Of a stretch of 64,000 nt of DNA, positions 6,140 through 52,885 are shown in pieces. The DNA comes from Dasypus novemcinctus. Taxonomy: Eukaryota; Chordata; Mammalia; Cingulata; Dasypodidae. The stretch is taken from positions 34,268,770-34,332,769 of the forward strand of contig NC_080682.1 of the NCBI RefSeq assembly GCF_030445035.2. The letters run 5' to 3'. Both the position numbers and the translations under genes were made by a program. Each line of letters starts with the position of its first letter. The first letter of the stretch is position 1. The notes below the pieces were generated by a model that worked only from the letters and a program-made list of their open reading frames with translations, was not told the DNA's origin and made no database searches.

Positions 6140-6982
6140 GTCATTCTACATCCATCAATTCCCTCCTTCTTGTTTTTGGCGATGTCTTATCGCAGGGGAA
6201 AGGGATGAAGCTCAGATCTTCTGTAACTACTTCTTGCTGACATTATGGGCATTGAGCTCTTTGAAAATTATAGTAAGAGGGTGGTCTGAGGAGGAAAAGT
6301 TAGTTTGTTAGAGTTTGCAACTGATTTTATTTAAAGCATTGCTTGTATGGTATGAGTATGGTTGCAATTGTCAAAAGAATAGGATAATAATTAACAAAGG
6401 AGACCAGCCACTTGGTGAAGCTGGATAGGTTCCAAGAAGAGAAATTATTTTCCTGTATTATGAGATTATTGTGTGTGTGTTTTTTTTAATGCTCTCACTT
6501 CTTTGGAGAGGTTTGTGACTAAGTACAGGGATGCAGCTGCAGTACTAACAAATGTGATTCTTAAAAAGGTAATCAAGGGCATTAATTGGCTTTTAAAAAA
6601 TTATTTGTGGTGTTACATGTTTTGGGGTTTACTTTTACAAAAGCCTGTTGGATTTTATTTAAATAGGGTATTCTGGTTATTGCTTTTAAGGTGTAGATTA
6701 ACTGAAACATTTTATTCTAAACTGTTTAGGCATTACTTGATATTGACTGTGCAAATTGACACAGTACCACACTTGGTTCTAATTGTAGATGTTTGGATGA
6801 TATGCAAAATATGTGTGTAGGATGAGTGATAGCTTCCCTCAGGGTTAGTTATTGGCAGGTTCCTATAGTAGGAAGAACAAAATTAGTATTTGGTGGAGTT
6901 TTGTTTTTTGTTTTTTTTGTTTTTCTTGAACAGGAACTGCAGGTTCTTGACTGGCTCTATCTCACATTTTGCTTCATGCTCT
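6140..6982 (-). other. 3' internal region of old ERV, no gene recognised
   Basis: This stretch lies between the end of the pol remnant and the 3' LTR, where env would be expected. I see no transmembrane or surface-protein signature on the - strand. The open frame at 6473-6820 on the + strand is antisense to the provirus and has no recognisable motif. Env is probably deleted. Confidence 0.5.
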
Positions 6983-7453
6983 TGTTATAGACCAGCAATA
7001 TTGACCACACTCAGACTTTGAATAAAGTTCCTATTGAGAGCTTTATTAGCCATGCAGCAACTGCCTTGTCCCATGCAGAGGAAAGAGCAGCCCCAAGTTT
7101 CAGGGAAGAAGTGTTTTCATAGTCTTTTAAGAGGGGGTGGTTACTAGTAAGTGAGTGAGCAAGCAGGCACAGAAGTGGAACACTGTGGCTAGCTGAAGGT
7201 AGCATATCTATTTTTTTTTTCTCTTTAAAAGCCCTTTTTTGTGTGAGCAGCCCCATGTTATTTATTGGCACTTTTCTTGGGAGCAGCCCTAAGCCCTAAG
7301 TTATTTATTGGCACTCTTCTTGGATGCAGCCCTAAGTTGTTTACACTCTTCTTAGGTGCAGCCTTGAGTTATTCATTTATCTGAAGGCACTTGCAATTCC
7401 CATTTCCTAATGTAGTTCTATTCCTATTTTCCCAATGTGGCTTTAACCTTACA
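6983..7453 (-). mobile_element. Solo LTR of a second ERV family, inside the old ERV
   Basis: The + strand sequence begins TGTTATAGACCAGCAATATT and ends CTTTAACCTTACA. The - strand carries an AATAAA about 50 bases before its end. CTCT is duplicated at 6979-6982 and 7454-7457, so this is a solo LTR left by recombination. A second copy of the same family lies at 35371-35837. A short internal repeat (TTATTTATTGGCAC) recurs within it. Confidence 0.88.
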
Positions 7454-7504
7454 CTCTGGTGTGATCTCCAGCTCAGGACCTCCTTTATCTGCTGGTTCCA
7501 ATAA

Positions 7505-7555
7505 CTAGTTGGGTTTTGCTGTGGTATGATGAACCCAGGGCTTGATTCCCTGCAA
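7505..7555 (-). pseudogene. pol remnant, C-terminal end of integrase
   Basis: The - strand reads a short frame containing 'PWVHHTTAKPN' followed by TAG. This is the motif class near the C-terminus of gammaretroviral integrase. It belongs to the old ERV and is separated from the rest of pol (14678-16648) by the young ERV inserted at 7738-14677. The upstream part at 7556-7737 is noncoding or too decayed to read. Confidence 0.7.
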
Positions 7556-8041
7556 CTTAAGTGAAGAATGAGAGGTTAACAGATAGAATGAGGTCTCTCC
7601 CATTTGGGTTTAAGCTGATCTTCAGGATGTTTGCTTTTTTAAACTTTTGAAAGAACCTGATCCCCCAATTGAGAAGGGGGGGAAAGGCTGGTTAGTGGGG
7701 TATTTTAGGTGCATATTTGCATATGCATGCATGGTGGTGATGTGGGCTATGGGTGGAAGGCTCTTTGTCTCTTCAGAGATAACGAAGTTGTTTGACTTGT
7801 GGGTGTGAAACGGTAAGAGGCTGCAGTCCTGCTCTTAGGGACCAGCAGGCTCCAGTCCCAGGAAATGTTTAACAAAGCAAGGGCTATAAACTTTAAGTAT
7901 TTAGGGGAAATGCAAAAACCAAGGCTTATCTAAAATGTCTGGAGTCCTTGCTAAAAGCTTACCTAAGATGTGAAAGAGATATATGCTAATTGAAGCCTAT
8001 TGAGAACTGAAACAAAGGGACCATTTGGCCTTTCCTCTCTG

Positions 8042-8048
8042 TATAAAA
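8042..8048 (+). promoter_or_regulatory. TATA box of young ERV 5' LTR
   Basis: TATAAAA lies 73 bases upstream of the AATAAA signal, the usual U3-R arrangement of a compact gammaretroviral-type LTR. The same box is at 14518-14524 in the 3' LTR. Confidence 0.75.
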
Positions 8049-8114
8049 GACGTTTGAAAATCTTGTTTGGGGCTCGGGATTCAAACAGAAAGCTCCCGAG
8101 TCCGGCCGGCCGTC

Positions 8115-8120
8115 AATAAA
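8115..8120 (+). terminator. Polyadenylation signal of young ERV LTR
   Basis: AATAAA followed by a T-rich stretch and a pyrimidine-rich U5. In the 3' LTR the functional copy is at 14591-14596. Confidence 0.75.
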
Positions 8121-8205
8121 CCATTTTTCCTTCTCAAAATCATTCCTGAGTCCTGGCCTCTCTATTCTCAAATAATTGAACTTCTCTTAAATTCCACAAC
8201 ATTAA

Positions 8206-8223
8206 TGGCGACCGCGAAGGGAC
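8206..8223 (+). other. Primer-binding site, tRNA-Arg type
   Basis: TGGCGACCGCGAAGGGAC starts four bases after the LTR. It differs at one base from the complement of the 3' end of a mammalian arginine tRNA (TGGCGACCACGAAGGGAC, from memory). The HERV9 group is known to use an arginine primer. Confidence 0.8.
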
Positions 8224-8443
8224 AAAAATGAAGGCCAGAGACGGTAGCATTTTGCTGCCCCTTCCAAATCCCCGAGGAAGCCGGGAGGACTCGGGTGAAC
8301 CCCAAATCTGGGCGCCCCTGGATTAAATTTAATCCAGAAAAGATGTGGGCTCCACCAGAATCTTCCCGACAAAATCAAGGGGCAATGGAAGGTCTGAAGA
8401 GAAGGATTCTGGGAACGAAAAAGAGCTCCGAACAGGGAAGAAG

Positions 8444-8445
8444 GT
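8444..8445 (+). promoter_or_regulatory. Candidate splice donor in ERV leader
   Basis: AAG|GTAAGA is close to the donor consensus, about 240 bases after the LTR. The older relative keeps the site at 37009-37010 as AAG|GTAAAA. A spliced transcript is possible even without coding capacity. Confidence 0.55.
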
Positions 8446-11296
8446 AAGACTCCCCGGGTGAGCAGAGTCTGGAAGGCCCTAGCTTTAATTGCTAGGAAGG
8501 GGAGGCTGATCACCTCCCGAGAGAACCCTAGTAGCCCCAGAACGCTGGGGGGAAGCCGTTCTCTCTAGGCTTGGGAAAAGGAGGAAAACCGGGGAAAAGC
8601 CCTGGTGTTTTGGGTTTGTCTAACTGCATGTTAGAATCTGGTACTGGTCTTATATCCACTAAAGGAGTGGAGTCGCGATTTTAATAGGAAGGGTATTTAT
8701 AGGTTCGAGTCCTAATATCCTGGAAATTGGTCTAGATTAAGGAAAACAAAACTTGGTTACAGGAAAATGGATCAGCTTTTCTGGTGGAGCTTGGTCTGGG
8801 TGTAAAGTTTAACCAGTGGAAAAGTCTAGCTGAAATCTTTTGTTATGGTGCTAATTTGTGAATGAATTTGCTTTATACCAAATGTTAAGTGTTCTGAGGT
8901 TTGTGATGGCTGTGGGGGCAGCCGTGGTGAAAATAAATATATAAACTTGTGAGTCAGATTAGTGACCTTTGTGCTTCTGTCTGTGTCAGCTCAATGTTAG
9001 TGTTGGAGTTGTGTCCTTACATGAAGTAGAATTACAGCTGAGCTGGAGCCCTCCCTTGCCATTGGCAAGGGGGTGAAATGATTCTGGGGCAAAAGCTGAG
9101 GAGTCTAGATGTTTGTGCATGTTCTGGTGTCTTGTCTCTGGTCTGGCCCTTTGCTGGGGCTTGGAGGCCATCTGTGTCCGCGCCAAGCACCCAAGTCTGT
9201 TGGGAATGTCCCAGTCAGGGCGGCTGGGTTCCTGGGAGAGTTGCCAAATTTGAGTAGGTTCTGTCTGCCCATTTTGGCTGAAAGCTGGAAAGGGGGGAGC
9301 GGCTTGCCCCTTTCCAGTGAGTCCACCCTTCTATTCATAAGCCGCATTCCTGTTTGTTGTGCACCCGACTGCCTGGAAGGGGGGGAAGTGAAGGAGGTGA
9401 AAAGCAGAATCAGAATAAATGCAGTAAAGTTCCCTCCTTAGGGTGTCAAAGCCAAAATACGTTTGCATTCTGCTCAGGTTCTTAGAAGGTATTGTAGTAA
9501 CCTTAAGTAAGAGAATGTGTTCTGTGAAGGTAAACTTTGTATTAAGGGTATAAATAATTATAAAAGTTTTACAAAGCATTGTTTAAGGTATTTAAGTGGC
9601 TAATTGCAGAAAGTCATTATTTAACAAAACTGAATTGATAATAATAATAATAAAAGGCAATTTTATAACAAACTTATTCGGCAGCCAATCTCCCCTGCCA
9701 ACTTGCTTCCAAAAAAAAAAAACTGTTTCTGGTATTACATGCTACTAAGTATTTAAAGTGAAGAAAAGTTCATTATTTTAACAAACTTGTTTAGTATTAA
9801 TGGCAATTATATGTTGTAAGAAGTTTGCCTGGTAACTCAGTATGTGGGATATATGGAGTGTGTTTTTATTGTTAAGGAAACAGAAGATGATTTTGTCCTA
9901 AGATAAAATGATTGATTATTGGAAAGAGTAGAGTGTGGGACAGAACCTGAATGAATACTGAAAGTGTAGAAGGTTTGTGGAAGGGAAATTTTTATGATTA
10001 AATTGAGTAAGATCAATATATAAAGAAAATCTTTTATCAATAGCTTCTTGTGCTTTAACCTCATCATATCCTCAATGTTTGAAGAAGAGTCTTACCTCTT
10101 TTAAAAGAACATTTTATGTTCTAGAAATCAAATCCTGAAAAGTAGCCTTTTATTTCAAACTAACTGCAAGAGATTTATTCTTTCACTTTAAAGGAAAAAT
10201 TAAAGTAATGGTTAAGTTCATTTAATATGTTATAAGTTGAATGAAAGGTATTTAAAGGTGTTATAAAATTAATAGGTTTTAAAAAATTAATAAAAACTGT
10301 AAGAGTTAAAATCATTTATAAATGCATTTATATTGTAAAACAGTGGAAAGACAATAACTGAGATTATAGCTGGGTGAATTTAGCCTGAAACTATTATTTA
10401 AGTGTAAATTCTACACTAACCTTTCCTTTGTTTATGGTTGCTTCAGGCCTAACCTCGCCCTTTGCCTTTGCCTGTGGTTATTTCATAATTGAGAAGAGCT
10501 GGGACATCATTGTCTCCTCTTCTGGTATTAGTAACCCTTTCTCTCATGAATTCAAGTGTAAACTAAATAAATTGCTGCCTGATAGAATAAGGTTAAATGG
10601 CCACTGGAGTTTTATTATCTCCAAAATCAAAAGGGGGGTGGAGGGGGAGAAGTCTCCTGCCTTGACAGTCAGTGTTCCTAAGAGTGGCAATTCATGAGAG
10701 AAAGCAGTCTGTCTCCCTGAGGCTTCAAATAGCCTCAGTAAATATATATAAAGTTAATCTTGTGGCTTATCCAAAATTCTGCTAATTTCAAAGTAAAATA
10801 TAAAGTTCTAAAACAAAATGGTGCTAAGGCATTGAGAACATTTTGGTTATTACAATCCATTAAGTAAGAAAGAAAATTCTTGTGGTAAACTGCATGGTCA
10901 TAGTGCAAATTAAGAAGAGTTTCAAAAGTCTTTGAAAAGTTTGAAGTAACTAAAGTCATGTTGTTGTGTCAGACTGTTCATGTCTGCCTATTTGCTCAAA
11001 TTGTTAAAGGTTAAATATGCAGTTATATTTATAAATATTCTTAAAGCCCAAATTGAACTAAGCAGGATGAAAAAGTCATAGAAATCTGATTATGGAAACA
11101 ATTGGGAAAGGGCCTCCTCTTTGCAAGAGCTTTTAAGGCAAGACTAGGTGTGGCAGATTAAACCTATCTACTAGGCTAGGGAATTAAGAATCAGTTTGCC
11201 TGGTAATTTCCCAGTTTAAACCTTTGTCAGCCATAAATTGGAAAAAAAAAAACAAAAAACAAAACAAAGATTAGGTTAATTTTCACAGAAGAAAAA

Positions 11297-11759
11297 TGTT
11301 GATGTAACCCGGCGGCCTGCTGCCTCAGTCTCCCACTCCCGGGTTGGACAGCAGTGGAGGAGACCAGTTTAGGCCAGTCCTATGGGCAGTGGAAGGATGC
11401 CCAAGAAGGAGCTAACTAAGTCGGTGCCATTTCAGCACTAAATTCTATTCCTTATTTGACAAAGGGGGGAGCAGGTAAAAACTAAAATGGTTGGAATGTG
11501 ATAGAAGAAGCAGTTAAATCAAACTTTTGCGTGGGAAAGTTAAATCTCAGATAAGCTGTAACTTCTGAAGTATCCAATCTATGGAAAAACAGGAAGAGCT
11601 TGCATGCTAGGCTTAGGGGTATAAATTGTGTCATTTTTCTTTGTTCGGGGCACCAGCCATATCTGGCTCTGCACCCCTTCTTGCAAGATTGAGAATAAAG
11701 TATTTTCTTCTCCACAATCTGGTGAGCCTTATTTTCTTCCAGAAGATTTCTTTCCAACA
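11297..11759 (+). mobile_element. LTR-containing segment embedded in young ERV
   Basis: The segment has LTR-like parts: a purine tract (11461-11475), a TATA-like box (11620-11627), AATAAA (11694-11699) and an end at TTCCAACA. The older relative near 39690 lacks it and reads straight through an AAATAAGG site. AAAT follows the segment at 11760-11763 and also precedes it. It may be the 3' end of another provirus, or an inserted LTR. Its left boundary is uncertain. Confidence 0.55.
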
Positions 11760-14201
11760 AAATAAGGTAATTAGTGGCTCTATTAACAAATTTCAGTAAG
11801 AAAAGGAAAGTCCATAAAAACTATGGAGAGATCTTTCCTGGGTTATGATTTTAAAAAATTAAGTAATTGTGTAATGTGTTTTGAAACCTGGAAGTCAGTA
11901 TGCATGTGTTTTAAAACCTGGTAGTCAGTATGCTTTTAATTTAATAATTTTGATAACTTAAAGAAAAGAAGTTTTTAGCTTCCTGTAAGGGAAAAAGAGA
12001 ACATTCCTTGCATAAACTATTATGGTTTCAATTTTATTTAACTTGAGTGTAATCTCCCATAGTTAATTTATAAACTAAATTAACATTACACAAAATCTTT
12101 ACAGTAATGAAAATTGTAAGTTCACATTGGTGAAATTAGGCTAAAGGGAAAAGATTGTAGATATGCTCTCTTAAATAAAGAGTAAATTTCTTTCATTGGT
12201 AATTGTAATTTAGTAAGTTTATTTAAACATGAGGTGTCTAGTCAATGCGGTTATAGTCAATTATAAAGAGTTTGTAAAACATCTTCCAAACTGAAAATGT
12301 TTAAATAGTTCTAGTTGTAGAAGTCGTTGTTAACTAAAGAAACTTAGATTGGTATTGGTAGCAGAAATAACTTCATGATAATAAACCTGTCTGAAGGCCA
12401 CTGCAAAATACACATTTAAGTAAATGGTAATAAAAAGTTGTCTTGATTCTATTGGAAATATTCTGTTTTCATTCTAACAATGAAAAGTATTTTTCCTCTA
12501 TTACTAAAGTAAAGTACCTACTGTTATCTTCATAGTAAAATTGTGTAAGTAAATAGTCATTTGATATATGTATTGCGTTAAGTTGTTTAAAATATATATA
12601 AAACAAGGAATAAACTTTAACATTGTCAAACTCTTGTGCATTCGAACCAGGCCTTGTATACATTACAGGTGGCCTCTCCATGTGAGTTATTGGCTAGGCT
12701 GGTCACTGACCCCTCAATTAAAAATATGTGCTATATCAGTCTCTGGTTCTGCTCCTGAAGTTGATGGAAACTATATTGCAGTTTCAAGCTCCTGCAGCCA
12801 ATAATGACTCGGTACAGCCAAGTGTACAATGGATATCGCCTCCAGACTGGCACTGTTCCATGGTGCCAGAGAGCACTATGCACCAGGCTAGTAGAATACT
12901 GGAAAATCTCTGGAATACTGGAAGGATGCTGCAACTTGCTCACTGCGTTGAAGAACATGCTAAGTGGAGCCATGATACCAGGAGACTGTAAGTAAAACTT
13001 GAGCACAATTGGCATTATGGCCTGCTCTCATGGAGAGATAACATGTAAAGTATTACAAACCTGAAACTCAAAACTAATAATGGCAACTCTGAATCCTTAT
13101 GCATTAATACATTAGTTAATATTAAGTGCTGTACTTTTATCCTGTACTAAATATATGCCTAATAATTGTAATGTTATCTTTTCTATTTTGGATCAAGTGC
13201 AGAAGTATATTAGACATGTTAAATTCCTGGTAAAATCATTTTCTAAACAGTTAATAACATGTCTATAGAATAAGGTGGCAGTCTCAGCCAGTCTCAGTTA
13301 GCAAAAGTGAGGCTTGCTTGCTGATGGTGAGTCACCTATTGAACAAGTCAAAATTGCTAGAAATTGTACAATGAAAACCAAGGTGTAAAAATCTTTATTC
13401 TGTAGTTCTGATCACTCCCACAGGTGAAAACTAAGAGTATTTCCAAATTAGTGTTCTAATCCTGAGTGAAGCCAGTTGCCCAAGGAGTGCCAGTTCACCA
13501 GGAGCATCTGACAGAGCGAATGAGTGTCAATCATTGAACAGCTTGGAATGTGTCTTCAGACAAAGCTAAGTGTCTGTTGCAATTTCTCTCTAAAGATGGA
13601 TAACTTAAAAAAGAATATATATGCTGTTCCCACCAGCTTTTAAGGAATGCCATCTTTATAGGCATCTAATCTTGTCTATCTCTGTAATCCAATGTGTCCT
13701 CTTTTAAAAACGGGTATTCCAAATTTTTAATTAAGTTTGTTTCTTTCAGAGTGAACATCTTATTAACCATATGAAAACTTCATCCAACTTCGTACAGAAT
13801 GCCAGATCCATCTTCCTCCAGTTAGAATAAATTAAAGAGTTTTTACACCTTATCAGGCAATGACTACAGCCCATGGCCAGCAGGAAGCAGTTACAGAAAA
13901 GAGATCGTCTCCCTTCAGCACCCCTTTTAAATTAAAGGTGTAAACTCTTTAAGAGTAAAATAAAAGTAATAGATGGATCTGGAACCTGACTGGAAATCCA
14001 CGTGAGTGCCAGTGGCAGCAGAATAACTGCGGGAGGCCCCTGCCCAAGATTCTGCTGTCCAGAATGAAAAGTTCTAAACTTCTAAAAACGGTCCTTGATG
14101 CTGTACTAAAGACTGATAAATAATCAGTCAAGACAACAAACAGTCATCCACCTCATAGCTACAACAATAATTATGCCAAAGCTTAGCAAGTAAACTTTGA
14201 C

Positions 14202-14213
14202 AAAGGGGGGGAA
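14202..14213 (+). other. Polypurine tract of young ERV
   Basis: AAAGGGGGGGAA abuts the first base of the 3' LTR, the expected place for the plus-strand primer. Confidence 0.88.
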
Positions 14214-14677
14214 TGATGTGGGCTATGGGTGGAAGGCTCTTTGTCTCTTCAGAGATAACGAAGTTGTTTGACTTGTGGGTGTGAAACGGTAAGAGGCTGC
14301 AGTCCTGCTCTTAGGGACCAGCAGGCTCCAGTCCCAGGAAATGTTTAACAAAGCAAGGGCTATAAACTTTAAGTATTTAGGGGAAATGCAAAAACCAAGG
14401 CTTATCTAAAATGTCTGGAGTCCTTGCTAAAAGCTTACCTAAGATGTGAAAGAGATATATGCTAATTGAAGCCTATTGAGAACTGAAACAAAGGGACCAT
14501 TTGGCCTTTCCTCTCTGTATAAAAGACGTTTGAAAATCTTGTTTGGGGCTCGGGATTCAAACAGAAAGCTCCCGAGTCCGGCCGGCCGTCAATAAACCAT
14601 TTTTCCTTCTCAAAATCATTCCTGAGTCCTGGCCTCTCTATTCTCAAATAATTGAACTTCTCTTAAATTCCACAACA
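14214..14677 (+). repeat. 3' LTR of young ERV
   Basis: It matches 7738-8201 with no difference seen. It is followed by the second copy of the target repeat GTGG at 14678-14681. Confidence 0.95.
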
Positions 14678-14699
14678 GTGGTAAGGAGCTCTCTTAACT

Positions 14700-15250
14700 G
14701 CAAAGCTCACTTATGGAGGGCTCCCTCTAAGGTCACTAATGAGTTGTTTTTTTTCTCTCGGTTGCTTAGAAAGGGCCTTCTGTACATAAGCTCAAAAGGA
14801 CTTAATTCAAGTCCTCTTCTGGGGCCACCCTAACCCAAATGAGAGCTAGGTTAGTGCTTCTGTCCATTTCAACTATGTTTCTTGACAAATTTTACTTAAG
14901 GTTTTCTTCAAAATATAGTTTATTCTTTCCACTTTTCCTGATGACTCAGGTCTCCAGGCTGCATATAGTTTCCACTTAATTCCAAGACAGTGATTGATAG
15001 CCTGTACCACAGCTGAAATAAAAGCAGGTCTATTATCTGATGAATTGTTTGGGGCAGTCCAAACCTCGGGATGATTTCCTGGAGGAGGAATTTAGTTACC
15101 GTGGAATGCTTTTCTGTGTGGCAGGGAAAGGCTTCCACCCACCCTGAAAAGGTGTTTACAAAAACTAAAAGATACTTAAAATTTCTTGTGGTTTTTGGCA
15201 TGACTGTGAAGTTTACTTGTCAATCTTCCACTGGGGCAAGCCCTCGACTT
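14700..15250 (-). pseudogene. pol remnant, integrase core
   Basis: The - strand frame at 14920-15201 carries 'KYLLVFVNTFSGWVEAFP' and then 'LLQEIIPRFGLPQTI'. These are unmistakable class I (gammaretrovirus-like) integrase core signatures. The first acidic catalytic position reads N, the segment around the next is broken, and stops and frameshifts occur throughout. It belongs to the old ERV and cannot encode an active enzyme. Confidence 0.88.
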
Positions 15251-15275
15251 TGTGTCTCAAAAGAAGTCCACTATG

Positions 15276-15303
15276 TTTTTTTTTTTTTTTTGGGGGGGGG
15301 GGG
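15276..15303. repeat. T16-G12 homopolymer junction
   Basis: Sixteen T followed by twelve G inside the pol remnant. Base counts here are likely to be unreliable in any assembly. Confidence 0.8.
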
Positions 15304-15967
15304 TGTTACTTTTCTGACAAAAAAAGACACTGATTAGAGAATTTTTGCACTTTTTGCTGTCCCAAATGTGTGGTTTGGTGATAATAAGAGACTAGGGGAT
15401 ATGCTAGATTTTCAGGCAGATAAAACTGCCTTTGGCTATTTTTCAGCCACTTACCCCCTTTTTCCAATTTTTCTGAATTCTCTTGAAATCCCTATTCTTT
15501 TGCACACTTGAGATCTTCAGGGGTATAGACTGGACAGAAAACTTCCTCTATATGTTGAGAAATCTGAGTTTAATGAGTGCAACAACTTGACTAGGAGAGT
15601 AGCCTTTTCTTGCAGCCTCTTTTGCAACTTGATCTGCTTGCCTGTTAATTAGGGCTACATAGGAGTCTCCTTTTTGATGCCTCAGCAGTGCATTACAGCT
15701 ACTTCTGCTGGTAGTTTTACTGCTTTTAAAAGTTCAGTTATTTTTGTGGCAAGCTTAATATTTTTCCGCCTGGATGGTAAAATTCTTCTTTCCTTCCAAA
15801 TGACCCCATGTGCATCCAAGATAAGAGAAGCATATTTTGAATCAGTGTAAATGTTCACTCTTTTTCCATCCCCTCTTTAGAGGGCTCTAAGAAGAGCAGA
15901 GCTCCCTGGGGGAAGTGGTGCATCTTCTATTACTTCCCCCCACAGTTATAAGAGCATATCAAGCCTT

Positions 15968-16648
15968 TCAAACACCCCCTTCAAGGAAGCTACTTCCATC
16001 CATGAAGATTTTTAAATCTGGATTTTGTAGAGGAGTATTCTGCAAGTCTTTCCTGGAATAAAAGACTTTCTCTAGCATTTCTATACAGTCGTGAATAGGT
16101 ATTTCTTCAGTGCTTGATGGGAGTAGAGAAGGTGGATTTAAGGTTGCACAGACTTTTAATTTAACTTCTGAGTTTTCTAGGAGTGTTGCTTGACATTTTC
16201 CAAGCCTCCTTTGGGTTAGCCAAAGATTTCCCTTTCTTTCAAGCAGTGTTAGTACTTGATGACGGGTGTGAATAGTGAGGGGCTGTCCTAATGTAAATTT
16301 TTCAGCTTCTTGTAATAAGACACAGTTTGCAGCAACAGCTCTTAAACATGCCGGCCACTGTTTTGCAGTATTGTCTAGTAATATTGAGAAGTAGGGTACT
16401 GGACAATGCTCACCTCCCAATTTCTGAGTTTATACTCCAAGGGTGACAGTTTGTTTTTCATGGACAAATAAATTAAAAGGTTTTCTGAGATCTGGTAATT
16501 CTAGAGCAGGGGCACTCTTTAGCTCCCTCTTCAGTTGATGAAAGGCTTGCTTACATTCAGAGGCCACTGGAGGGGTTCTGTGTCCCCACCAATCAAAGTT
16601 TTTGCTGGACCTCCTGTAATTTAGTGATTGATTTTTGCTTTGGAGCAC
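15968..16648 (-). pseudogene. pol remnant, reverse transcriptase connection and RNase H
   Basis: Two - strand frames together give the connection domain and the start of RNase H. The frame at 16430-16648 has 'ECKQAFHQLKRELKSAPALE'. The frame at 15968-16420 has 'WPACLRAVAANCVLLQEAEK', later 'LWLTQRRLG' and then 'LKIFMDGSSFLEGG', the RNase H start. The polymerase fingers and palm with the YxDD motif are absent. The upstream sequence changes directly to gag near 16650, so roughly the end of gag, the protease and the first part of pol are missing. The frames are offset by a frameshift. The family is class I. Confidence 0.88.
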
Positions 16649-16649
16649 T

Positions 16650-17420
16650 TATCCACAGACCAGCAAGAATGCAGATTCCAATGAGAATCAGCTTCAGGGA
16701 CTGTCTCATTTGGGGAGCTGTAAATAAAGTTTTGCAGTGCCACTTGCTGCAATGTCTTGGCTTCTTGTTGGACTTTTTTTCAAGGACCATTAGTCTTTCC
16801 TTGGAGGTGAGGAGGACATTTATAAGAGTTTGTATATTAGCCACACTTTGTGTGGCAAAAGTGGAAACAAACAAGGTTCTTACTTTTTCAGGATCTGCAC
16901 AATAAGCAGGAGTGTTATTTTTCCAATTAAATAAATCAGACGTGGTGAAAGGAGTGTGGGTGAAAAGAAGGCCTTGGGGTCATCCTTGATCATTAATTCT
17001 ACTTGGAATTTGCTAGGGCAGGAACTCACCTACAGTCCCTTTGGTTAGGGGGTCTATCCTGGCCAAAAACAGCTCCACTCTGTATGGAAGGCAGATTGAA
17101 GGAAAGGCCCTTGTGGGAGGGAAAGTGGGCCTGATATCTCTAAGGGAAGAGTGGTTTTTCACAGTGGCCCTGGTGAGGAAGGAGACAGAGATGGTTTAGA
17201 ATAATGAGGGGGTGAGGTACTTAAGTTGAGGAGTTCACTAATGGATTCAAAGAGAGGGAATCCCAGGACTTGAATTTTTTTTTTGTAACTGGTGCTGAAG
17301 GGGCCCCGCACAACATTAAGCCACAATTCTTTCTGGTTTCTTTATCTTTCTACAACTCCAAGAAAACTTGAGCATATGGGATTTCTGCCCATTTCTCTTG
17401 CTGTTTACAAAACATATCTA
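16650..17420 (-). pseudogene. gag remnant (matrix and capsid region)
   Basis: The - strand near 16930 reads a capsid-like 'FTTSDLFNWKNNTPAYCADP' and continues 'ANIQTLINVLLTSKERLMVL'. This resembles the start of gammaretroviral capsid, including its 'ERE' helix region. Around 17340-17410 the - strand reads '[14 protein letters not shown]', like a matrix segment. Stops and shifts break the frame. A SINE is inserted just upstream (17446-17817). The hydrophobic run at about 16680-16720 first suggested env, but the gag context fits better. Confidence 0.68.
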
Positions 17421-17445: not shown

Positions 17446-17817
17446 TTAAAGATTTATTTATTTATTTCTATCCCCTCCCCCCTGCCCACCAGCCCTGCTT
17501 GTCTGTTCTCTGTGTTTATTTGCTATGTCTTCTTCTTTGTCCACTTCTGTTGCTGTCAGCAGCATGGGAATCTGTGTTTCTTTTTGTTGCATCATCTTGT
17601 GTCAGCCCTCCATGTGTGCAGCACCATTTCTGGGCAGGCTGCCCTTCTTTCATGCTGGGCCCTACATGGGGGACACCCCTGCGTGGCAGGGCACTCCTTG
17701 CACGCATCAGCACTGCACATGGGCCAGCTGCACACGGGTCAAGGAGGCCAGGGTTTGAACCGCAGACCTCCCATGTGGTAGATGGATGCCCTAACCACTG
17801 GGCCAAGTCCACTTCCC
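17446..17817 (-). mobile_element. DAS-SINE (armadillo tRNA-derived SINE)
   Basis: It is the reverse complement of the element at 63077. The tRNA-like head with box B lies at the right end (TTTGAACC near 17753) and the (TTTA)n tail at the left. ATAGTATTAAAA-type direct repeats flank it at 17429 and 17818. Frames at 17422-17834 on both strands are SINE-derived. Confidence 0.93.
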
Positions 17818-17839: not shown

Positions 17840-18060
17840 CATTTTTTTTTGGCCAATTTTTTTTTGTTATTTACTCTATATCTAGGTCTAGCTTTATTAC
17901 AAAAAGTAATTAATTTATTTTTTTGTACCCAGATTTTCCAAATTTAAACTAATTTTTCAGGATGCATCCTAGTGGTGAGCACTCAGGTACCAACACCTCA
18001 TTCTCCATGGTGGCAGAAAGAGAGAGAGAGATAACAGTTAAAAGTAAAGGCACAAAAGGC
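17840..18060 (-). other. 5' leader or gag start of old ERV, unresolved
   Basis: Noncoding as far as I can read. It contains T-rich runs and a short (GA)n near 18020-18031. Confidence 0.4.
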
Positions 18061-18449
18061 AGCAGGCTTCCCCTTAAAGGGAGTGAGGGAGTGGGATTCA
18101 AACTCACCAAACTTTTCCCACCTACTACCAAACCTTCACTACCTTAGCAAAGGTAAACCAAATGCTAACTCACAGCCAAAACTAAACAGCAGGTTTCCCT
18201 TTTAAGGGAGCCAGGGAGTGGGGCTCAAACTCACCAAGACCTCTCCCACTGTAACCAAACCTCCACTACTGGAGTGAAGGTAAACCAAATGCTAACTCAC
18301 AGTTAGCTAAAACCAAACAGCAGGTTTCCCTTTTAAGGGACTGAGGAAGTGGGACTCAAATCCACCAAGACTTCTCCCACTGTAACCAAACCCTCACTCC
18401 AGTAGTGAAGGTGAACCAAATGCTAACTTGCAGGTAGCTAAAAGGAAAA
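18061..18449 (-). repeat. Three tandem repeats of about 129 bp in ERV leader
   Basis: Copies start at 18061, 18188 and 18319 with AGCAGG(C/T)TTCCC. Each carries 'TTAAGGGA' or a variant, 'TCACCAA' and a 'GTAAACCAAATGCTAACT'-like end. Spacings are 127 and 131 bases. They lie between the primer site and gag of the old ERV. Confidence 0.85.
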
Positions 18450-31046: not shown

Positions 31047-31994
31047 TTATTTCAATTGCTTGGAGTCCTGTCTCTTTTGTATGACTCTAATGAGAGCATT
31101 TTTCACTTCTTTGTTCCTAAGACTATAAATGAGTGGATTCAGCATGGGAATTACCATCGTATAAAACACAGATGCCGCTTGATCTCTTCCAAAAGAGTAG
31201 GACTTCTTTGGTTTTAAATAAGTAAAAATTGTAGTGCTAAATTAGATGGTGACTCCCAAGAGGTGGGAGGCACAAGTAGAAAATGCCTTGAGTTTTCCTG
31301 AAGTGGAATTAATTTTCAGGATTTTAGACACAATTGACACATAGGATATAGATATTGTGATAAGAGACACAACTGCATTAAAAGTAGCGCAAATGATTAT
31401 CGTGATTTCAGTGTCACGAGTGTCAGTGCAAGACAGGGCTAAAATTGGGGTTAAGTCACAGAAAAAGTGATAAATTATATTGGAGTTGCAGAAATGCAAA
31501 CTGTTCATGAAAAGAACATTGCCTAATGATTCAGTAAAACCAATCATATAGGACCCAGTTACAAGGAGGTGGCAGAGTCTGGTGGACATGACCACTTGGT
31601 AGTGAAGAGGATTGCAGATAGCCACATAGCGGTCATAGGCCATTGAAGAGAGAAGGAAAAATTCAGTGACACACAAGAAGACAAAAAAGTACATCTGGGT
31701 GAAGCAGCCAATGAATGAAATATACTTGTTGGAAGTCATCAAGTTCTTCAAGGTTTTAGGTGTGATGACTGTTGAGTAACTCAGGTCTAGGAATGACAAG
31801 TGGCTGAGAAAAAAATACATGGGAGTGTGAAGCTTGAGATCCAGGCGAATTATCAGTATCATCCCTGCATTTCCCAGCATGGTCAGCAGGTATATCAGGA
31901 GAAATAGCATGAAGAGGCCCCACAGGATCTCCTCAGATTCTGTGAACCCAAGAAGGATGAAGTCAGGCACATTTGTTTTATTCCTAATTCCCAT
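31047..31994 (-). pseudogene. Class II olfactory receptor with one premature stop
   Basis: The reading frame encodes a seven-transmembrane odorant receptor of about 315 residues, normal for the family. It starts at '[12 protein letters not shown]'; an upstream Met at 32012 adds six residues but is not typical. N-glycosylation site NKT is at residues 5-7, TM1 'LGNAGM' near 40-45, 'LHTPMYFFL' at 55-63, '[10 protein letters not shown]' at 118-127, and 'FSTCASH' in TM6. A single TAA at 31242-31244 is codon 251, where family members usually have 'FYGT'. After it the same frame continues with '[15 protein letters not shown]' to the natural stop at 31047-31049. There is no frameshift. It resembles OR families 5 and 8. 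It is either recently dead, polymorphic or a base-call error. ORs lack introns in the coding part, as here. Confidence 0.92.
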
Positions 31995-34350: not shown

Positions 34351-34987
34351 TTATTTGGAGATCTGAGAACCACTTGAATTTATTTAAAATAGGTAACCTT
34401 AGGTCATAAACCAAGGTAGAGACTGAAGGAGATATTCTTTTTTAAATCCAATGTCAGTAAGCTTTAATCCTTGCAAAATCACTGTAAATGAGTTTTACTT
34501 CACAAAATTGAATTTGATTTTTACAATTATTAATTGTACCTTCAAATAATATAAGTAATAGGTGAAGAAAGGTATTTCTCAAAATGAATTCAATGACCAA
34601 TTATTTTTTGGCTTAATCATTACTGGTACTATTTTAGTATTGATGTGGGCTATGTGTGTGAGGCTGTTTGTCTCTTTGTAGATAACCTAAGTTATATGTG
34701 TCCTGACTTGTGGGTGTGGGACAGTGAGAGGCTGTAGCCCTGCCCTTGGTGACTATGGCAATGAATCCAGTCCCAGGAGGCAATTTAGCAATGCAAACTC
34801 TATATGCATACCAGTCAGTCCAGGGAGACTCTGATGGTGGTGATGCCGAAGGTTAAGGGAACTTGGAATTGTCCTCGAGTGGGAAATATAATATAACATG
34901 TGCATAAATTCAAAATTATATAATTCTTTGTCCAAGTGTGCCTAGTTTCTAGAAATCCAGTTAAGTGATACAGGCCCTATAGGTTTT

Positions 34988-36417
34988 TTTTTTAATGATA
35001 TTTAAGAAATTTATTACAATTTACTTGCAATAACAAACATGTGCTTTGATATTTTTATTACAAAAACTGAGTTTTCGATGAAGGCAGTTTAGCAAGACTA
35101 TAGTTGTGAAAATGATTTTGAATTTAGCAGTGTTTTAAACTTAAACTAAAAATGATGGTAGAACAAAATATCAAGCAGGTGAAAATTTTTCTTTCATATA
35201 TGCATAAATATTTTTCATGTAAGCAAAACAAAGATCAAGGAATAATTAAATTAAATATCAAGGTCAACAACAGAAATATACAGATTTAAAAGGCATTTTA
35301 TTTTACTCATGCTTCCATTAAACACGACTGGTATAAGCAGAGCAAAAAGAATCAGATCAATCTTTACATTTGTTATAGACCAGCGATATTGACCAGACTC
35401 AGACTTTGAATATAGTTCCAATTGAGAGCTTTATTAGCAGCGCGGTGACTGTCTCATTCCTCTGCAGAGGAGAGAGCAGCCCCGAGTCTCAGGGAAGGGG
35501 TGGTTTTATAGCTTTTTAGGAAGGGGGGCGTCTACTAATAAGTGAGCAAGCAAGCAGGCACAGAAGCAGAACACTGTGGTTAGCTGAAGGTAACATATCT
35601 ATGTTTTTTTCTTTTTGAAAGGCTTCTTCTTGTAAGCAGTCCCATATTATTTATTGGCACTCTCCTTACAGGCCATCCTGTTATTTATTGGCACTCTCCT
35701 TACAGACTGTCTTAAGTTATTTATTGGCACTCTCTTTACAGACCGTCTTAAGTCATTTATCTATTTGAAGGCACTTGCAATTCCCACCTCCCAATGTAGT
35801 TCTATTCCTATTTTCCCAATGTGGCCTTACCCCTACACATTCTCTGCAGATGCATTTCAAGAAGTTACACACAATAAAGACCTCTCTCTAGGAGAAAAGA
35901 AAATATTAGAGTAGTTAGGCTCCTGAAAGTTATGACCTTCAAATTTTAAGTCACTCTTTTTGCTCTATTATGAAACTATATGGTTTATCAGAATTTTGCC
36001 AGTCAAAAGAAGGTAAAGCTAACACTGGTGAAATCCGGCCCTAACACACTTGGCAGCAAATTAGGTACAATGAACAGATTTTCCTCTCAATGTGGATTAA
36101 CCATGCTTTTGAAGATAATCACTTCCAATGTGAAATAAACCAGTTAAGTTAAAACAGACAATAATTAAATGGCTATTCAAGGGTATTTCTTGACATGTGT
36201 TCCAGGGACTACCTGAACCAGAATTAGGCAGAGTACTTAAAACAACAAAAATGTGCATTCCTGGCTTAACCACAGACTCTGTGGGGAATGAATCATGGCC
36301 CCTGATAAAGGTATTTCAGGCCCCACCCCAGACCTGTGGGGTTGACCCATCTTTCAAATGTTACTTTGGTTAAGGTCTAACTGAATCAGGTTGCACTTTA
36401 ATCTAGATTTTTGGAGT
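34988..36417 (-). mobile_element. Processed retrocopy of an unidentified transcript
   Basis: CCTATAGGTTTT is duplicated at 34976-34987 and 36418-36429. The T-run at 34984-34993 is the poly(A) tail of a - strand copy. The - strand has AATAAA about 18 bases before the tail. Removing the solo LTR leaves about 960 bases that look like an mRNA 3' UTR; the extreme 5' part (36275-36417) contains MaLR-like sequence. No open frame identifies the source gene. Confidence 0.75.
35371..35837 (-). mobile_element. Solo LTR, same family as 6983-7453
   Basis: It runs on the + strand from TGTTATAGACCAGCG to CTTACCCCTACA, with CATT duplicated at 35367-35370 and 35838-35841. It carries three or four copies of a 'TTATTTATTGGCACTCT' unit of about 45 bases. 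It sits inside the retrocopy, so it is younger than that insertion. Confidence 0.9.
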
Positions 36418-36792
36418 CCTATAGGTTTTGAATGTTCAGAAAGGATGTAAGACTGAATGTGTATTCAAAGTTGCATTCAGACAGAATGTGGGTGAGATGC
36501 TAATTCAAGCTCACCTGAAAGGTGGGTGATATGTTAATTCAAAACCTATCTGGTACTTAGGCAAGCACATAACTAACAAAGAAAGTCATTTTCTTTTATA
36601 AAAGCACCATTTGACTCTGAACCCTGTATAAAAGGGACTTGAAAATCTTGTTTGGGGCTCGGATTTGAAACAGAAAGTTCCTGAGCCTGGCCAACTGCCA
36701 AAAAAAACATGTTTTCCTTCTCAAAATCATTCCTGAGTCCTGGCCTTTCTATTTGCAAATAACTGAAGCTCTCTCAATTTCTACAGCATTAA

Positions 36793-36810
36793 TAGGGGCT
36801 CATCCTGGAT
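36793..36810 (+). other. Primer-binding site, tRNA-Pro type
   Basis: TAGGGGCTCATCCTGGAT matches the proline site known from murine leukaemia virus (TGGGGGCTCGTCCGGGAT) at 15 of 18 positions. It stands exactly where the young relative has an arginine site. Confidence 0.65.
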
Positions 36811-39800
36811 TGCAAATGAAGGCCAGAGATGGTAGCATTTTGCTGCCCCCTCCAGATCCCTGAGGAAGTGGGAGGCCTCAGGTGAACACCAATCATCTTT
36901 GTGCCCCTGGATTAAATTTAATCCAGAAAACATGTGGACAAAATCTAGGATAATGGAATGTCTGAAGGAAAATTCTGGGAACAAAAAAACCTCCGAACAT
37001 GGAAGAAGGTAAAACTCCCCAGAGGGGCATAATCAGGAGAATCTTAGCTTTAATTGCTAGGAAGGGAGGCCAATCACCTCCTGAGAAAACCCCAGTACCT
37101 TCAGAAATTTGGGGGGAATCCATTCTCTCTAGGTCTAGAAAAATGAGAGGAAAAGGGAAAAAGCTTAGCGTTTTGGGTTTGTCTAACTGCATGTTGGAAT
37201 CTGGTACTGGTCTTGTCTCTGCTAAATGAGTGGAGGCTTGATTATGATGCGAAAGGATGTTTATAGGTCCAAGGTCTATCATCCTGGAAATTAGTCTGGA
37301 TTTTTAAAACTTGGTTATAGAAAAATGAATCAGCTTTTCTAGTGAAGTTTAGTGTGGGTGTAAAGTTAAACATTGAAAATGGTCTAGCTGGAAACTTTTG
37401 TTATGGGGCTGAATTGCAAATGATTTCACTTTATATCAGATGTTAATGTTAAGTATTTGTGATGGCTGTGGGGGCAACTGTGCTGAAGAAGATAATATAT
37501 ACATTTTGTGGGTCAGATTAATGACTTGTGCTTCTGTCGGTGTCAGCTAAATGCTGGTGTTGGAGTTGTGTGGTTATATAAAGTGGTGGAATTTGGTTGA
37601 GCTTGAACTCTCCCTTGTGATTGGGAAGGGGGTGAATTGATTATGGGGCAAAACTGTGGAGTCTGGCTGTTTGTGCATGCTCTGCTGTCATATCTCTGCT
37701 CTGCCCCTTTGCTGGGGTTTGGGGGCTGTCCATGTCCATACCATTCACCTAGGTTTGTTGGAGCTGGCCCCAGTCAGGGTAGCTGGGTCCCTGGGAGGTG
37801 CACCAAATTTTTGTAGGTTCTTTTGGCCCATTCTGGTGGAAAGCTGGAAAGGGGTGAGTGGCTTGCCCCTTTTCAGTGAGCCCACACCTTCTATTCATAA
37901 GCCACATTCCTATTTGATTGTTGTGCACCCTATGGCCTGGAAGGGGGGAGGTGAAGGGGATGCAGAGCAGGATCAAAATAAGTGCAATAAAGTTCCCTCT
38001 CTAAGGTGTCAAAGGCCAAAATAAATATGCATTCTGCCCAGGTTCTGTGAGACAATGTAAAAATGCTTTGAAATGTTTTAAAACTGTAAACTTGTCTAAA
38101 GGAAGGAGGCTATTGTTTGAAAACAATGGAACTCTAATCACTTGATAGCCTTTTTAATGGTCTGGCTGGAAACTTCAGGGTTGTGAAACTATAGAGAAAA
38201 AGAAAAGGGATAAACCTCCACTTTAAAATCTGTGTTTGGCTTTTGTTAGTTGCTGGCACCTAAGAATTCATGGTTAAAGGTAGTTTAAAAATGAATCTTT
38301 AAGTGCCAATACTCTCTTGCTGGTGAATTAAATGCATAACTTGCTGATGAGAATTTGTTCCATTACTAGGAAAATGGCAGAACTTCACAGAATTGTTACA
38401 AATAAAATTCTTGTAAATTAATTAATCAAGTTATCCAAATCACCTTAAGGGTAAAACATACTGAAAACTGTAACTAAGAGTTAAGATCATTTAAAGATGC
38501 ATTTACATTATAAAACAAGAAGGATAATAACTGAAATTATAACTGGGTGAATTTAGCCTGAACCTATTATTGTAAGTGTAAATTCTAAACTGATCTTACC
38601 TTCATTTATGGTCACTTCAAGCCTAGCCTCACCCCTTGCCTTTGCTTATGGTTATTTCATAACAGCTTCTACCCCTATAGTTCAGGGAAAAGTGGACATG
38701 GGACATTCCTGTCTCCTGTCCTACTTATATTCATAACCCTGCTTACTCTCATGATTCCAAGTGTGAACTAAATTGCTGCCTGGTGGAATTCTTAACCCTT
38801 GGGGTTGAACAACCACTGGAGTTTTATTGTCTCAAAGAACTGGGAAATCAAGGAGGTCTCCTGCCTTGACTGTTAGGGTCCCTAAGAGTGGCAATTCATG
38901 AGAGAAACCAGTCTCCCTGATGCTTCAATAGCCTTGGTAATTATATACATAGAATTAGTCTTGTTCCTTATCCAAAATTCTGCTAAATGCAAGGTAAAAT
39001 AAAAAATTCTGAAACAAAGAAATTTGTGTTAAAGCATTGGGAACATTTTTGTTACAAGCCATTAATTAAGAACAAAAATTCTTGTGCAAAACAGCATGGT
39101 TATAGTGCAAATTAAGGAAAAAAACTTTTAGAAGTCTTCAGTTATTTTGCAGTCACACTTGTTTTGTAAAAAATGAGTTTTAAGTAACTAAATTATGTTT
39201 CTGTGTCAAACTATTCATGTCTGCCTATTTGCTCATTGTTGGTTAAATATGCAGTTATATAAGTAATATATACTTCTAGAACCTAAATTAAAGTGAACAG
39301 TATATAAAATAATGCAAATTATATGTAACATCAATGAATTGTGTTTCTGTGTCTCACTCTTTGTGTCCGCCTATTTGCTCAATGTATATCTTCGTATATC
39401 AGGATAATAATATCAAACTAACAAAGGAAAATTCTTAAAAGATCTCTATTCAAATTGCTAAAAACTACATATGCAGTTATATGTGTGAATAAATATTCCT
39501 GGAGCCCGAATTAGACTAAGCAGGATGGAAGGGTTCTGATTATAGAAGCTATTGGCAAAGGTCCTCCTCTTTGCAAAAGCTTTGAGAGTGGGACTAGGTG
39601 TGGCAGATTAAACCTAGCTACTAGGCTAGGAAATTAAGTATCAATTCGCCCTGTAATTCCCCAGTTTAAATCTTCTGAGAGCCTTCAAATAAGGGTGGTT
39701 AGTGGTTCTGTTGCCGAATTTCAGTAAGTAAAGAAAGGTCTATAAAAGCTATGGAGAGGTCTTTCCTGGATTATGATTAAACAAATTACATGATTGTAAT

Positions 39801-40881
39801 GTGTTTCAGAATCTGGTAGTCAGTATGCTTTTAAAATTATTCCCAGTTTCAGAACTTAAACAAAGAAAGGAGATTTTGGCTTCCTGTAGGGAAAGGGGGG
39901 GAAAGCAGTCCTTGCTTAGACTATAATGGTTTCAGCTTTATTTAGCTTGGGTGTAATCTCCCTTAATTTATAAATTACCCATTAAATAAATTAACATTAT
40001 ATGTACAAAATCTTTGGAGCAATGAAAATTGTAAGTTCATGTTAATGAAATTAACCTAAAGAAGAAAATTGTAGATATGCTCTCTTAAATAAAGTAAACT
40101 TCTTTAGTTGGTAATTGTAATTTAATAAGTATATTTTGTTGTAGGAGTTGAGAGGTTCAATTATTTGCATACAGTAAGGCCAGGACTCAGGAATAATTTT
40201 TGGGAAGGAAAAATGATTTATTTACAACCGGCTGTGCTTGGAGATTCTCATTCCAAAATCAGCTCTGAACAAGATTTTTGAGTTCCTTTTATACAGAGGA
40301 AGAACCAAATATTTTTTTGTTTCAGTGCTTAATAGGCTTGAATTAGCTTTTAGCTCATTTGGTTTGCATTTTCCCTGAATATTTAAAGTTTATAGAGTTT
40401 GCATTGCTAAACTTTTTCCTGGGACTGGAGTCATTGCCATGGTCACCAAGGGCAGGGCTGCAGCGTCTCACCATCCCACACTCACAAGTCAGGAAAGACA
40501 GCTTAGGTTAAGGCTATCTCTGAAGAGACAAAGAACCTCACACCCATAGCCCAAATCAGTATAAACTCTCTAAAGGGAAAATAAAGCAAGCTAATAAGAT
40601 AAGAATTTAATAGATGGATCCAGAACCTGGCAAAAAGTCCACTAGAACATCAGTAATCCCCAGGATGGCTGCTGGAAAACCCCCACCCCCAAGATTCTGC
40701 TATCCAGAACAAAAACTTCTAGGAATAAGAAAAAGTCCCAGATATTACCCAAAAACTTTATCTTTAGGCCCTCAATGGGAAGCTAATAGGTGGGATAATC
40801 AAAACAACAAATAGCTGCCCACCTCATAACTCCAAAATAGTGCTGCCAAAGCTTAACAAGGCAAGCTTGCATCAAAGGAAA
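36811..40881 (+). other. Interior of older ERV, noncoding
   Basis: Aligns with about 8224-12225 and 13905-14201 of the young ERV, with small gaps. The splice donor is kept at 37009-37010. No retroviral protein signature is visible. A local duplication covers the CTGCCTATTTGCTC-type segment (39215 and 39365). A weak purine tract lies at 40873-40881. Confidence 0.7.
40137..40558 (-). mobile_element. Inverted solo LTR of the same ERV family
   Basis: The + strand reads TGTTGTAGGAGTTGAGAGG to CATAGCCCAAATCA, the reverse complement of the young-ERV LTR. It includes the TATA region (CTTTTATACAG near 40285) and the 'CCTGGGACTGGAG' block. Sequence matching 12225-13905 of the young ERV is missing at exactly this point. 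No clean target repeat is seen. Confidence 0.8.
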
Positions 40882-41248
40882 TGATATGGGCTGTATGGGT
40901 GCTGTGTGTTTCTTCATAAATAACCTGGGCTGGGTGTGTAAGCTAAATGTGTTAATTCAAGCTTTCCTGGAATGTGGAGAGTATGTGTTAATTCAAAACC
41001 TATCTAATACTCAGATAAAATACTTGAAGCTCTAAGAAACTAACAAAAAGTCATTTTGCATATAAGCACTCTTTGACTCCCCACTCCTACATCCTCTTTA
41101 TAAAAGGAACCCAAATATCCTATTCAGGGCTCAGTTTTTATTAGGACATGAGTCTGCTGAGTCCAGCCAGTCATAATAAATCTTCCTTCTCAGCTTCTTG
41201 CATCCTGGCCTTCAGTACTGCATACACCCTACTTCTCTCTCCACAACA
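40882..41248 (+). repeat. 3' LTR of older ERV
   Basis: It runs from TGATATGGGCTG to CTCCACAACA and is shorter than the young LTR because of internal deletions. TATA-like (TTTATAAAAGG near 41098) and AATAAA (near 41175) sites are recognisable. Confidence 0.8.
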
Positions 41249-51936: not shown

Positions 51937-52885
51937 TCACTGTTGTCTCAGTTGCCTGGAGCTGTCTCTCTTCTGCATGATTCTAATAAGGGCTTGTTTT
52001 ACTTCTTTGTTCTTAAGGCTATAATGAGTGAATTCAGCATGGGGATCATTATAGTATAAAACAGAGGTCACTTGATCCTTTCCCAAGGAGTAGGACTCAC
52101 TTGGTTTTAAATAAGTAAAAATTATACTGCCAAAAAAGATGGTGATTACTAGGAGGAGGGAGGCACAAATAGATGAGGTTTTGCATTTTCCTGAAGTGGA
52201 ATTAATTTTCAGGATAGTAGACTGAATGGACCCATAGGATACAGAGATTGTGTTAATAGACACCATTATAGTGGAACAAGAAGAAAGAATATTATGATTT
52301 CAATGGCATGAGTGTCAGTGCAGGACAGCACTAAAATTGGGGTTAAGTCACAAAAAAAGTGATGGATTACATTGGATTTGCAAAAATGCAAACTGCTCAT
52401 GCAAAATACATTGACCAAGAAGTCACTAAAGCCAATCATGTATGACACAGTGATGAGTGCATGACAGAGACTCATGCATATAGCAAACTGGTAGTGAACA
52501 GGATTGCAGATAGCTACATAGTGGTCATAGGCCATTGAAGAGAGAAGGGAGCACTCAGCGTCATCCAAGAAGACTAAAAAATGCATCTGCACGAAGCAGC
52601 CCATGAATGAAATATACTTGGTGGAAGTCATCAAGTTCTCTAAGGTTTTAGGTGTGATGACTGTTGAGTAACTGAGGTCTAGGAATTACAAATGACTGAG
52701 GAAAACATACATGAGTATGTGAAGCTTGAGATCCAGGTGAATTATCAGTATCATCCCTGCATTCCCCAGCACAGTAATCAGGTATATCAGGAGAAACAAC
52801 ATGAAGAGGACCCATAAAACTTTTCAGAATCTGTTAATCCCAGAAGGATGAATTCAGGCACGTTTGTGTTATTCCTACTTCCCAT
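51937..52885 (-). pseudogene. Olfactory receptor pseudogene
   Basis: Diverged duplicate of the receptor at 31047-31994. It starts 'MGSRNNTNVPEFILLGLTDS'. A one-base deletion near codon 23 shifts the frame. An in-frame TAA interrupts the TM2 region ('CATTTGTAATTCC' on the - strand). The second frame (52266-52634) keeps '[15 protein letters not shown]', with H in place of R in the usual DRY motif. A further shift brings in the third frame (51937-52266) with 'LKINSTSGK' and '[11 protein letters not shown]'. The TM7 'NPLIY' block is damaged. No functional receptor is possible. It resembles its neighbour more than other families, which fits local duplication. Confidence 0.93.

What the first reader, a model, noticed from the sequence alone, without database searches (positions are those of the whole stretch)
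7738..14677. Very recent insertion of a retrovirus-like element that encodes nothing
The two 464-base LTRs look identical, the 4-base target repeat GTGG is perfect, and primer site, splice donor and polypurine tract are intact. The 6-kb interior nonetheless lacks any gag, pol or env signature. The element must have been moved by another virus's proteins. Identical LTRs suggest it may be polymorphic in the species.
Basis: partly seen in the sequence, partly recalled or inferred. Interest (0 to 1): 0.75.

Follow-up and report, generated by a model that had tools for sequence, protein, structure and literature searches.

The report
Young non-coding passenger retrovirus-like element
A recently inserted retrovirus-like DNA element carries every signal needed to be copied but no recognisable viral genes, and an older relative beside it also lacks them, so it looks like a hitch-hiker on other viruses, much like known examples in mice.

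Summary
Window 7738-14677 is a complete LTR element: identical 464-bp LTRs, perfect GTGG target repeat, tRNA-Arg-type primer site, splice donor, polypurine tract. No retroviral family was found in its stop-to-stop pieces of 30 aa or more (51 plus-strand, 63 minus-strand), while the same library found gag, RNase H and integrase in a decayed gamma-type ERV next door.

(1) Older relatives lie at 34.6-41.2 kb; one shares much of the non-coding interior (79-83% identity, gaps aside), so the lack of genes is old. (2) That relative has a tRNA-Pro-type primer site in the same homologous context, so the primer seems to have changed. (3) The young element carries a nested 521-bp solo LTR; the relative has the empty site. 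(4) It sits antisense within the integrase end of the decayed ERV.

Copy number, coding partner, species and polymorphism could not be tested: the genome search did not complete. It works like mouse VL30/ETn: a new member of a known kind.

The parts
7734..7737 (.). target-site duplication GTGG, left
7738..8201 (+). 5' LTR, 464 bp, TG...CA; TATAAA at 8042, AATAAA at 8115
8202..14213 (+). interior, 6012 bp, no recognisable gag, pol or env
8206..8223 (+). primer binding site, tRNA-Arg type (17 of 18 to the motif assigned to tRNA-Arg in PMC11905727)
8441..8449 (+). splice donor AAG|GTAAGA; relative A has the site with one change
11239..11759 (+). nested 521-bp solo LTR of another element (TG...CA, TATAAA 11620, AATAAA 11694), flanked by AAAT 11235-11238 and 11760-11763; relative A has AAAT once there
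14202..14213 (+). polypurine tract next to the 3' LTR
14214..14677 (+). 3' LTR, identical to the 5' LTR
14678..14681 (.). target-site duplication GTGG, right
34641..40136 (+). relative A: older copy; 5' LTR in two pieces (34641-34804 and about 36495-36788, about 1.7 kb of other sequence between them), then the same non-coding interior in part
36793..36810 (+). primer binding site of relative A, tRNA-Pro type (15 of 18; only match in the window at up to 3 mismatches, 0.00 expected; motif recalled)
40137..40558 (-). C: single antisense LTR of the same family
40559..41248 (+). B: 3' interior end plus 3' LTR of a more diverged relative; probably not the partner of A's 5' LTR
14710..16979 (-). neighbouring decayed gamma-type ERV: gag p30 16596-16979, RNase H 15971-16429 and 15685-15876, integrase 14923-15219
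7508..7609 (-). MLV-type integrase C-terminal domain (MLVIN_C, E 7e-4, below Pfam's curated cut-off) on the other side of the insertion

Best explanation
A young, structurally complete, non-coding class I (gamma-like) LTR retroelement. Shown: identical LTRs, TSD, PBS, PPT, splice donor, no recognisable retroviral coding sequence, and older relatives in the same window of which the best preserved shares part of the non-coding interior. Inferred: the LTR promoter makes a full-length RNA; a co-expressed coding gamma-like ERV packages it, primes it with tRNA-Arg, reverse-transcribes it and integrates it with a 4-bp duplication. In the shared regions the lineage was already without genes before the common ancestor with relative A, and its primer site has since changed between the tRNA-Pro and tRNA-Arg types. 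The insertion lies antisense within the integrase end of an older, decayed gamma-type ERV.
For: LTR identity, TSD and PPT. PBS Arg type, 1 mismatch; tRNA-Arg assignment in passages of PMC11905727, motif reported in HERV9 in PMC4724089. No retroviral Pfam hit in 51 plus-strand and 63 minus-strand pieces at E<=1 or in 57 plus-strand pieces of 34641-41248 at E<=0.1, while pieces of the neighbouring relic gave Gag_p30 8e-8, RT_RNaseH 7e-8, rve 1.8e-7 (99-153 aa) and RT_RNaseH_2 2.6e-6, RNase_H 1.3e-4, MLVIN_C 7e-4 (34-72 aa). tblastn of seven relic pieces found nothing in the young element better than E 0.85. Against relative A, substitutions in 8226-9482 fall evenly on the three phases (80/407, 70/405, 81/406) and 3 of 19 gaps are multiples of three.
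Against: No coding partner with a related LTR was found; only this 64-kb window could be searched, because all 17 genome searches did not complete. 3008 of 6012 interior positions have no aligned counterpart in the relatives, so for that half the claim that the ancestor was already non-coding rests on the young copy alone. The control is imperfect: six of ten short relic pieces gave no retroviral family, among them a 40-aa stretch that looks like integrase by eye, and one hit (rve_3, 0.031) is no better than the chance hits in the element. The R-region hairpin is no stronger than shuffles (z -0.86). No packaging signal was demonstrated.
Confidence: 0.9

Rival explanations
1. A coding ERV of the same family recently lost its genes by recombination or deletion, so this copy is a defective one-off rather than a member of a non-coding lineage.
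For: Half of the young interior (3008 of 6012 positions, 521 of them the nested LTR) is not aligned to the relatives, and the 3' block aligned to B is far more diverged (K2P 0.45).
Against: Relative A shares non-coding interior in the blocks 8226-9482, 10214-10800, 10996-11234 and 11760-12224 at K2P 0.20-0.24, with no codon signature in 8226-9482, the block tested, and no retroviral Pfam hit in 57 plus-strand pieces.
Confidence: 0.07
2. The insertion is older than it looks: the LTRs were made identical by gene conversion or by assembly collapse.
For: Both processes are known in general (recalled); neither was testable here.
Against: The TSD is perfect and the PBS, PPT and donor are intact, which fits youth.
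Confidence: 0.08
3. The primer-site difference between the young element and relative A is mutational decay or misassignment rather than a change of primer tRNA.
For: The Pro-type site has 3 mismatches and the relative is old; the tRNA-Pro motif is recalled, not taken from a tRNA database.
Against: The two 18-mers agree at only 7 of 18 positions (counted by eye) while the sequence on both sides is clearly alignable; each site matches its own motif far above chance (0.00 and 0.01 expected).
Confidence: 0.1

Closest known systems
Mouse VL30
   Same: Class I non-autonomous LTR element; no intact ORF; LTRs 436-681 bp; 4-bp TSD in 76 of 86 full-length copies; identical LTRs in 42 of 86; PBS differing between copies (Gly 57, Pro 17, Gln 10, Met or Thr 2) (passages of PMC4859993); [quoted passage not shown]
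   Different: VL30 retains gag- and pol-related regions with stop codons; here none was detected. The PBS here is Arg type. No sequence comparison with VL30 was made.
Mouse ETn (helper MusD)
   Same: LTR element with no coding capacity, mobilised by a coding ERV (passages of PMC6466679; PMC7472051)
   Different: ETn/MusD is class II (beta) and uses tRNA-Lys; this element has a tRNA-Arg PBS and a 4-bp TSD. No coding partner is known here.
HERV9/HERV-W group (primer site only)
   Same: PBS differing by one base from the motif reported in HERV9 chains (PMC4724089, passage)
   Different: No comparison of LTR or interior was possible; a shared PBS does not show kinship, since PBS usage is reported as relatively unstable (PMC4724089, passage).

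Membership tests
non-autonomous LTR retroelement | paired LTRs with TSD, PBS and PPT | tested here: met
non-autonomous LTR retroelement | no gag/pol coding capacity | tested here: met
   positive control
non-autonomous LTR retroelement | multiple copies sharing the non-coding interior | tested here: inconclusive
   relative A shares part of it; the genome could not be searched
class I (gamma-like) ERV | 4-bp target duplication and a PBS type used by class I ERVs | tested here: met
   HERV9 is listed as gamma-like in PMC4724089. Consistent with class I, not exclusive to it (recalled).
class I (gamma-like) ERV | pol phylogeny | not testable with these tools
   the element has no recognisable pol
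VL30 | stop-ridden gag- and pol-related regions | tested here: not met
VL30 | sequence homology to mouse or rat VL30 | not tested
   no VL30 sequence was on hand
ETn/MusD | tRNA-Lys PBS | tested here: not met
   the PBS is tRNA-Arg type; the tRNA-Lys usage of ETn/MusD is from a passage of PMC7472051
ETn/MusD | coding partner related by LTR | not testable with these tools
   genome search unanswered (17 calls)

The most novel reading that the evidence does not exclude
A gene-less retroelement lineage that stayed mobile for tens of millions of years by changing helpers. The young copy and relative A share non-coding interior (K2P 0.20-0.24; about 48 My if two neutral lineages at a recalled 2.2e-9), yet their primer sites fit different tRNAs (Arg and Pro), as expected if the lineage outlived one helper virus and passed to another with a different primer preference.
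Probability: 0.25. Interest if true: 0.6.

Novelty: new member of a known kind. Interest (0 to 1): 0.35.

Why it matters
Non-coding mammalian ERVs that still move are, to my knowledge, best known from mice (VL30, ETn). A recently inserted one with an old gene-less relative beside it and a different primer site offers a case for testing how long such parasites last and whether they change helpers. If polymorphic, the insertion could also serve as a population marker. The finding is otherwise ordinary.

Tried and rejected
ORF 9109-9441 (110 aa) as a gene: rejected. The overlapping frame in relative A matches over 39 residues only, substitutions per codon position are 18/109, 24/110 and 19/110, indels shift the frame, and 35 of 300 shuffles reach this length. 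Eight plus-strand pieces at E<=10 gave no family. Weak Pfam hits in the element: four families at E 0.02-0.032 on the plus strand and five on the minus strand, best Fijivirus_P9-2 at 0.0016, none of them retroviral, taken as chance. Weak hits in 34641-41248: five unrelated families, best 0.041.

B as the 3' partner of A: rejected. The 3' part of A's 5' LTR and B's LTR differ at 90 of 273 sites (33%, K2P 0.46), more than A's LTR pieces differ from the young LTR (K2P 0.23 and 0.30).

Capture of a host exon at 12640-12995 (GC 46%, splice-like borders): not pursued; no mammalian sequence was on hand. Rfam gave no match at gathering thresholds. The two ARAGORN tRNA-Gly calls at 17740 and 63080 look like SINE pieces by recall and are not part of this.

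Limits of the scans. Of the 118 stop-to-stop pieces of 75 aa or more in the window, 91 went into; of the 27 dropped, 13 lie in the young element, 7 in the relatives and 7 overlap other pieces downstream of 56 kb. One search lists 25 families and does not name the piece behind each; three were traced to the neighbour. The minus strand of 34641-41248 was not scanned against Pfam. One search had no positive control.

Literature. Four searches gave nothing on this element that I could see: (20 of 74 papers listed; 3 of 3; 8 of 55; 12 of 41), listings and starts of abstracts only. The armadillo betaretrovirus paper PMC5008099 is not held; I know it only from a reference list. Searches served to find the papers cited.

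Full report
Observation. The element is present as described. The 464-bp LTRs at 7738-8201 and 14214-14677 are identical at all 464 positions, start TG and end CA, and are flanked by GTGG on both sides. The signals needed for copying are intact: a primer site at 8206-8223, a donor AAG|GTAAGA at 8441-8449, and a polypurine tract at 14202-14213. With no difference in 464 bp, the 95% upper age is 1.47 My at 2.2e-9 substitutions per site per year, or 0.72-2.15 My over 4.5e-9 to 1.5e-9 (the rates are recalled).

Interior. The plus-strand stop-to-stop pieces of 30 aa or more (51 of 51) and the minus-strand ones (63 of 63) of 8202-14213 were scanned against Pfam; no retroviral family appeared at E<=1, only unrelated weak hits, best 0.02 and 0.0016. 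As a positive control, a decayed ERV on the minus strand next to the element gave Gag_p30 (8e-8, 128 aa), RT_RNaseH (7e-8, 153 aa) and rve (1.8e-7, 99 aa). Of ten shorter pieces (34-72 aa) in and around that relic, three gave clear retroviral families, RT_RNaseH_2 (2.6e-6), RNase_H (1.3e-4) and MLVIN_C (7e-4), one gave rve_3 at 0.031, no better than the chance hits in the element, and six gave no retroviral family, including a 40-aa stretch that looks like integrase by eye. Four of the relic hits (rve, RNase_H, RT_RNaseH_2, MLVIN_C) lie below Pfam's curated cut-off, as does rve_3. The scan would thus see a gag or pol in this state of decay, though not every fragment of it. tblastn with seven relic pieces found nothing in the element better than E 0.85. 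The longest plus-strand stop-free run, 110 aa, is reached in 35 of 300 dinucleotide shuffles.

Relatives in the same window. Blastn of the element against the window shows older family members at 34.6-41.2 kb. Relative A (34641-40136, plus strand) has a 5' LTR in two pieces and then the same interior in part. Divergence in the blocks 8226-8600, 8601-9482, 10214-10800, 10996-11234 and 11760-12224 is 17-21% with gaps left out (K2P 0.20-0.24); blastn identities that count gaps are 71-79%. The 57 plus-strand pieces of 34641-41248 give no retroviral family at E<=0.1. In the 1218 aligned sites of 8226-9482 the 231 substitutions fall evenly on the three phases (80, 70, 81) and 3 of 19 gaps are multiples of three. 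The shared ancestor was therefore, most likely, already without genes in these regions. Overall 3004 of 6012 interior positions align to the relatives, 258 of them (13956-14213) to B and not to A. At 40137-40558 lies a single antisense LTR (C), and at 40559-41248 a 3' end with LTR (B). B's LTR differs from the 3' part of A's 5' LTR at 90 of 273 sites, so B is probably from another, older copy.

Primer change. The young PBS matches the motif TGGCGACCACGAAGGGAC at 17 of 18; PMC11905727 assigns this motif to tRNA-Arg on GtRNAdb (passage), while PMC4724089 reports it in HERV9 and prefers the label Trp (passages). Relative A has, at the homologous place, a site matching the tRNA-Pro motif (recalled) at 15 of 18; it is the only match in the window at up to 3 mismatches, with 0.00 expected. 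The sequence on both sides aligns between the two copies. Such a replacement of the PBS alone fits priming by a different tRNA at some point in the lineage. It has precedent: VL30 copies use Gly, Pro, Gln, Met or Thr primers (PMC4859993, passage), and ETn can switch between lysine tRNAs (PMC7472051, passage). Which of the two types came first is not known; relative A is the older copy.

Nested insertion. Against relative A the young element has an extra 521-bp segment, 11239-11759, with TG...CA ends, TATAAA and AATAAA, flanked by AAAT at 11235-11238 and 11760-11763; relative A has AAAT once. I read it as a solo LTR of another element. Whether it entered the lineage or only this copy cannot be told from one copy.

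Insertion site. Integrase sequence of the neighbouring decayed gamma-type ERV lies on the minus strand to the right (14923-15219; an integrase-like stretch by eye down to 14710) and an MLV-type integrase C-terminus to the left (7508-7609, E 7e-4). The young element thus most likely sits antisense within that old integrase region. The two sides were not joined.

Mechanism. Shown: anatomy, youth of the LTR pair, absence of recognisable genes, a relative that also lacks them, a different primer site. Inferred: transcription from the LTR, packaging by a co-expressed gamma-like ERV, reverse transcription from tRNA-Arg, and integration in trans. No coding partner was found; the genome search did not complete in all 17 calls, so copy number, helper and polymorphism are open. 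The species was not tested; SINE pieces in the window recall armadillo to me, which is memory, not a test.

Comparison. It works like VL30 and ETn. It is not filed as VL30, because VL30 keeps stop-ridden gag and pol regions (PMC4859993, passage) and none was detected here, nor as ETn, whose primer is tRNA-Lys (PMC7472051, passage). It is a new member of a known kind, non-autonomous class I LTR retroelements, with a noteworthy hint of long persistence and a change of primer.

Noticed in passing
14710-16979 and 7508-7609 (minus strand): Decayed gamma-type ERV with recognisable gag p30, RNase H and integrase, interrupted by the young element; no reverse transcriptase core family is among the 25 families listed or the hits.
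   Followed up: partly
6982-7454 and 35370-35838: The two stretches are 80% identical over 480 columns; both lie close to a member of the non-coding LTR family, the second between the two pieces of relative A's 5' LTR.
   Followed up: partly
31245-32090 (minus) and 51940-52685 (minus): Olfactory receptor gene pieces: a 282-aa open stretch (7tm_4, 2.9e-39) and two broken pieces.
   Followed up: no
12640-12995: G+C-richer island (46%) in the young element, between an acceptor-like ACAG and a donor-like GTAAGT; not aligned to relative A. Could be a captured piece or chance.
   Followed up: no
40137-40558: The antisense LTR lies where about 1.7 kb of the young interior (12225-13955) has no counterpart; its immediate flanks do not form a clean 4-bp repeat.
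   Followed up: partly
18047-18435: Three head-to-tail copies of a unit of about 131 bp, the outer two 73% and 85% identical to the middle one.
   Followed up: no
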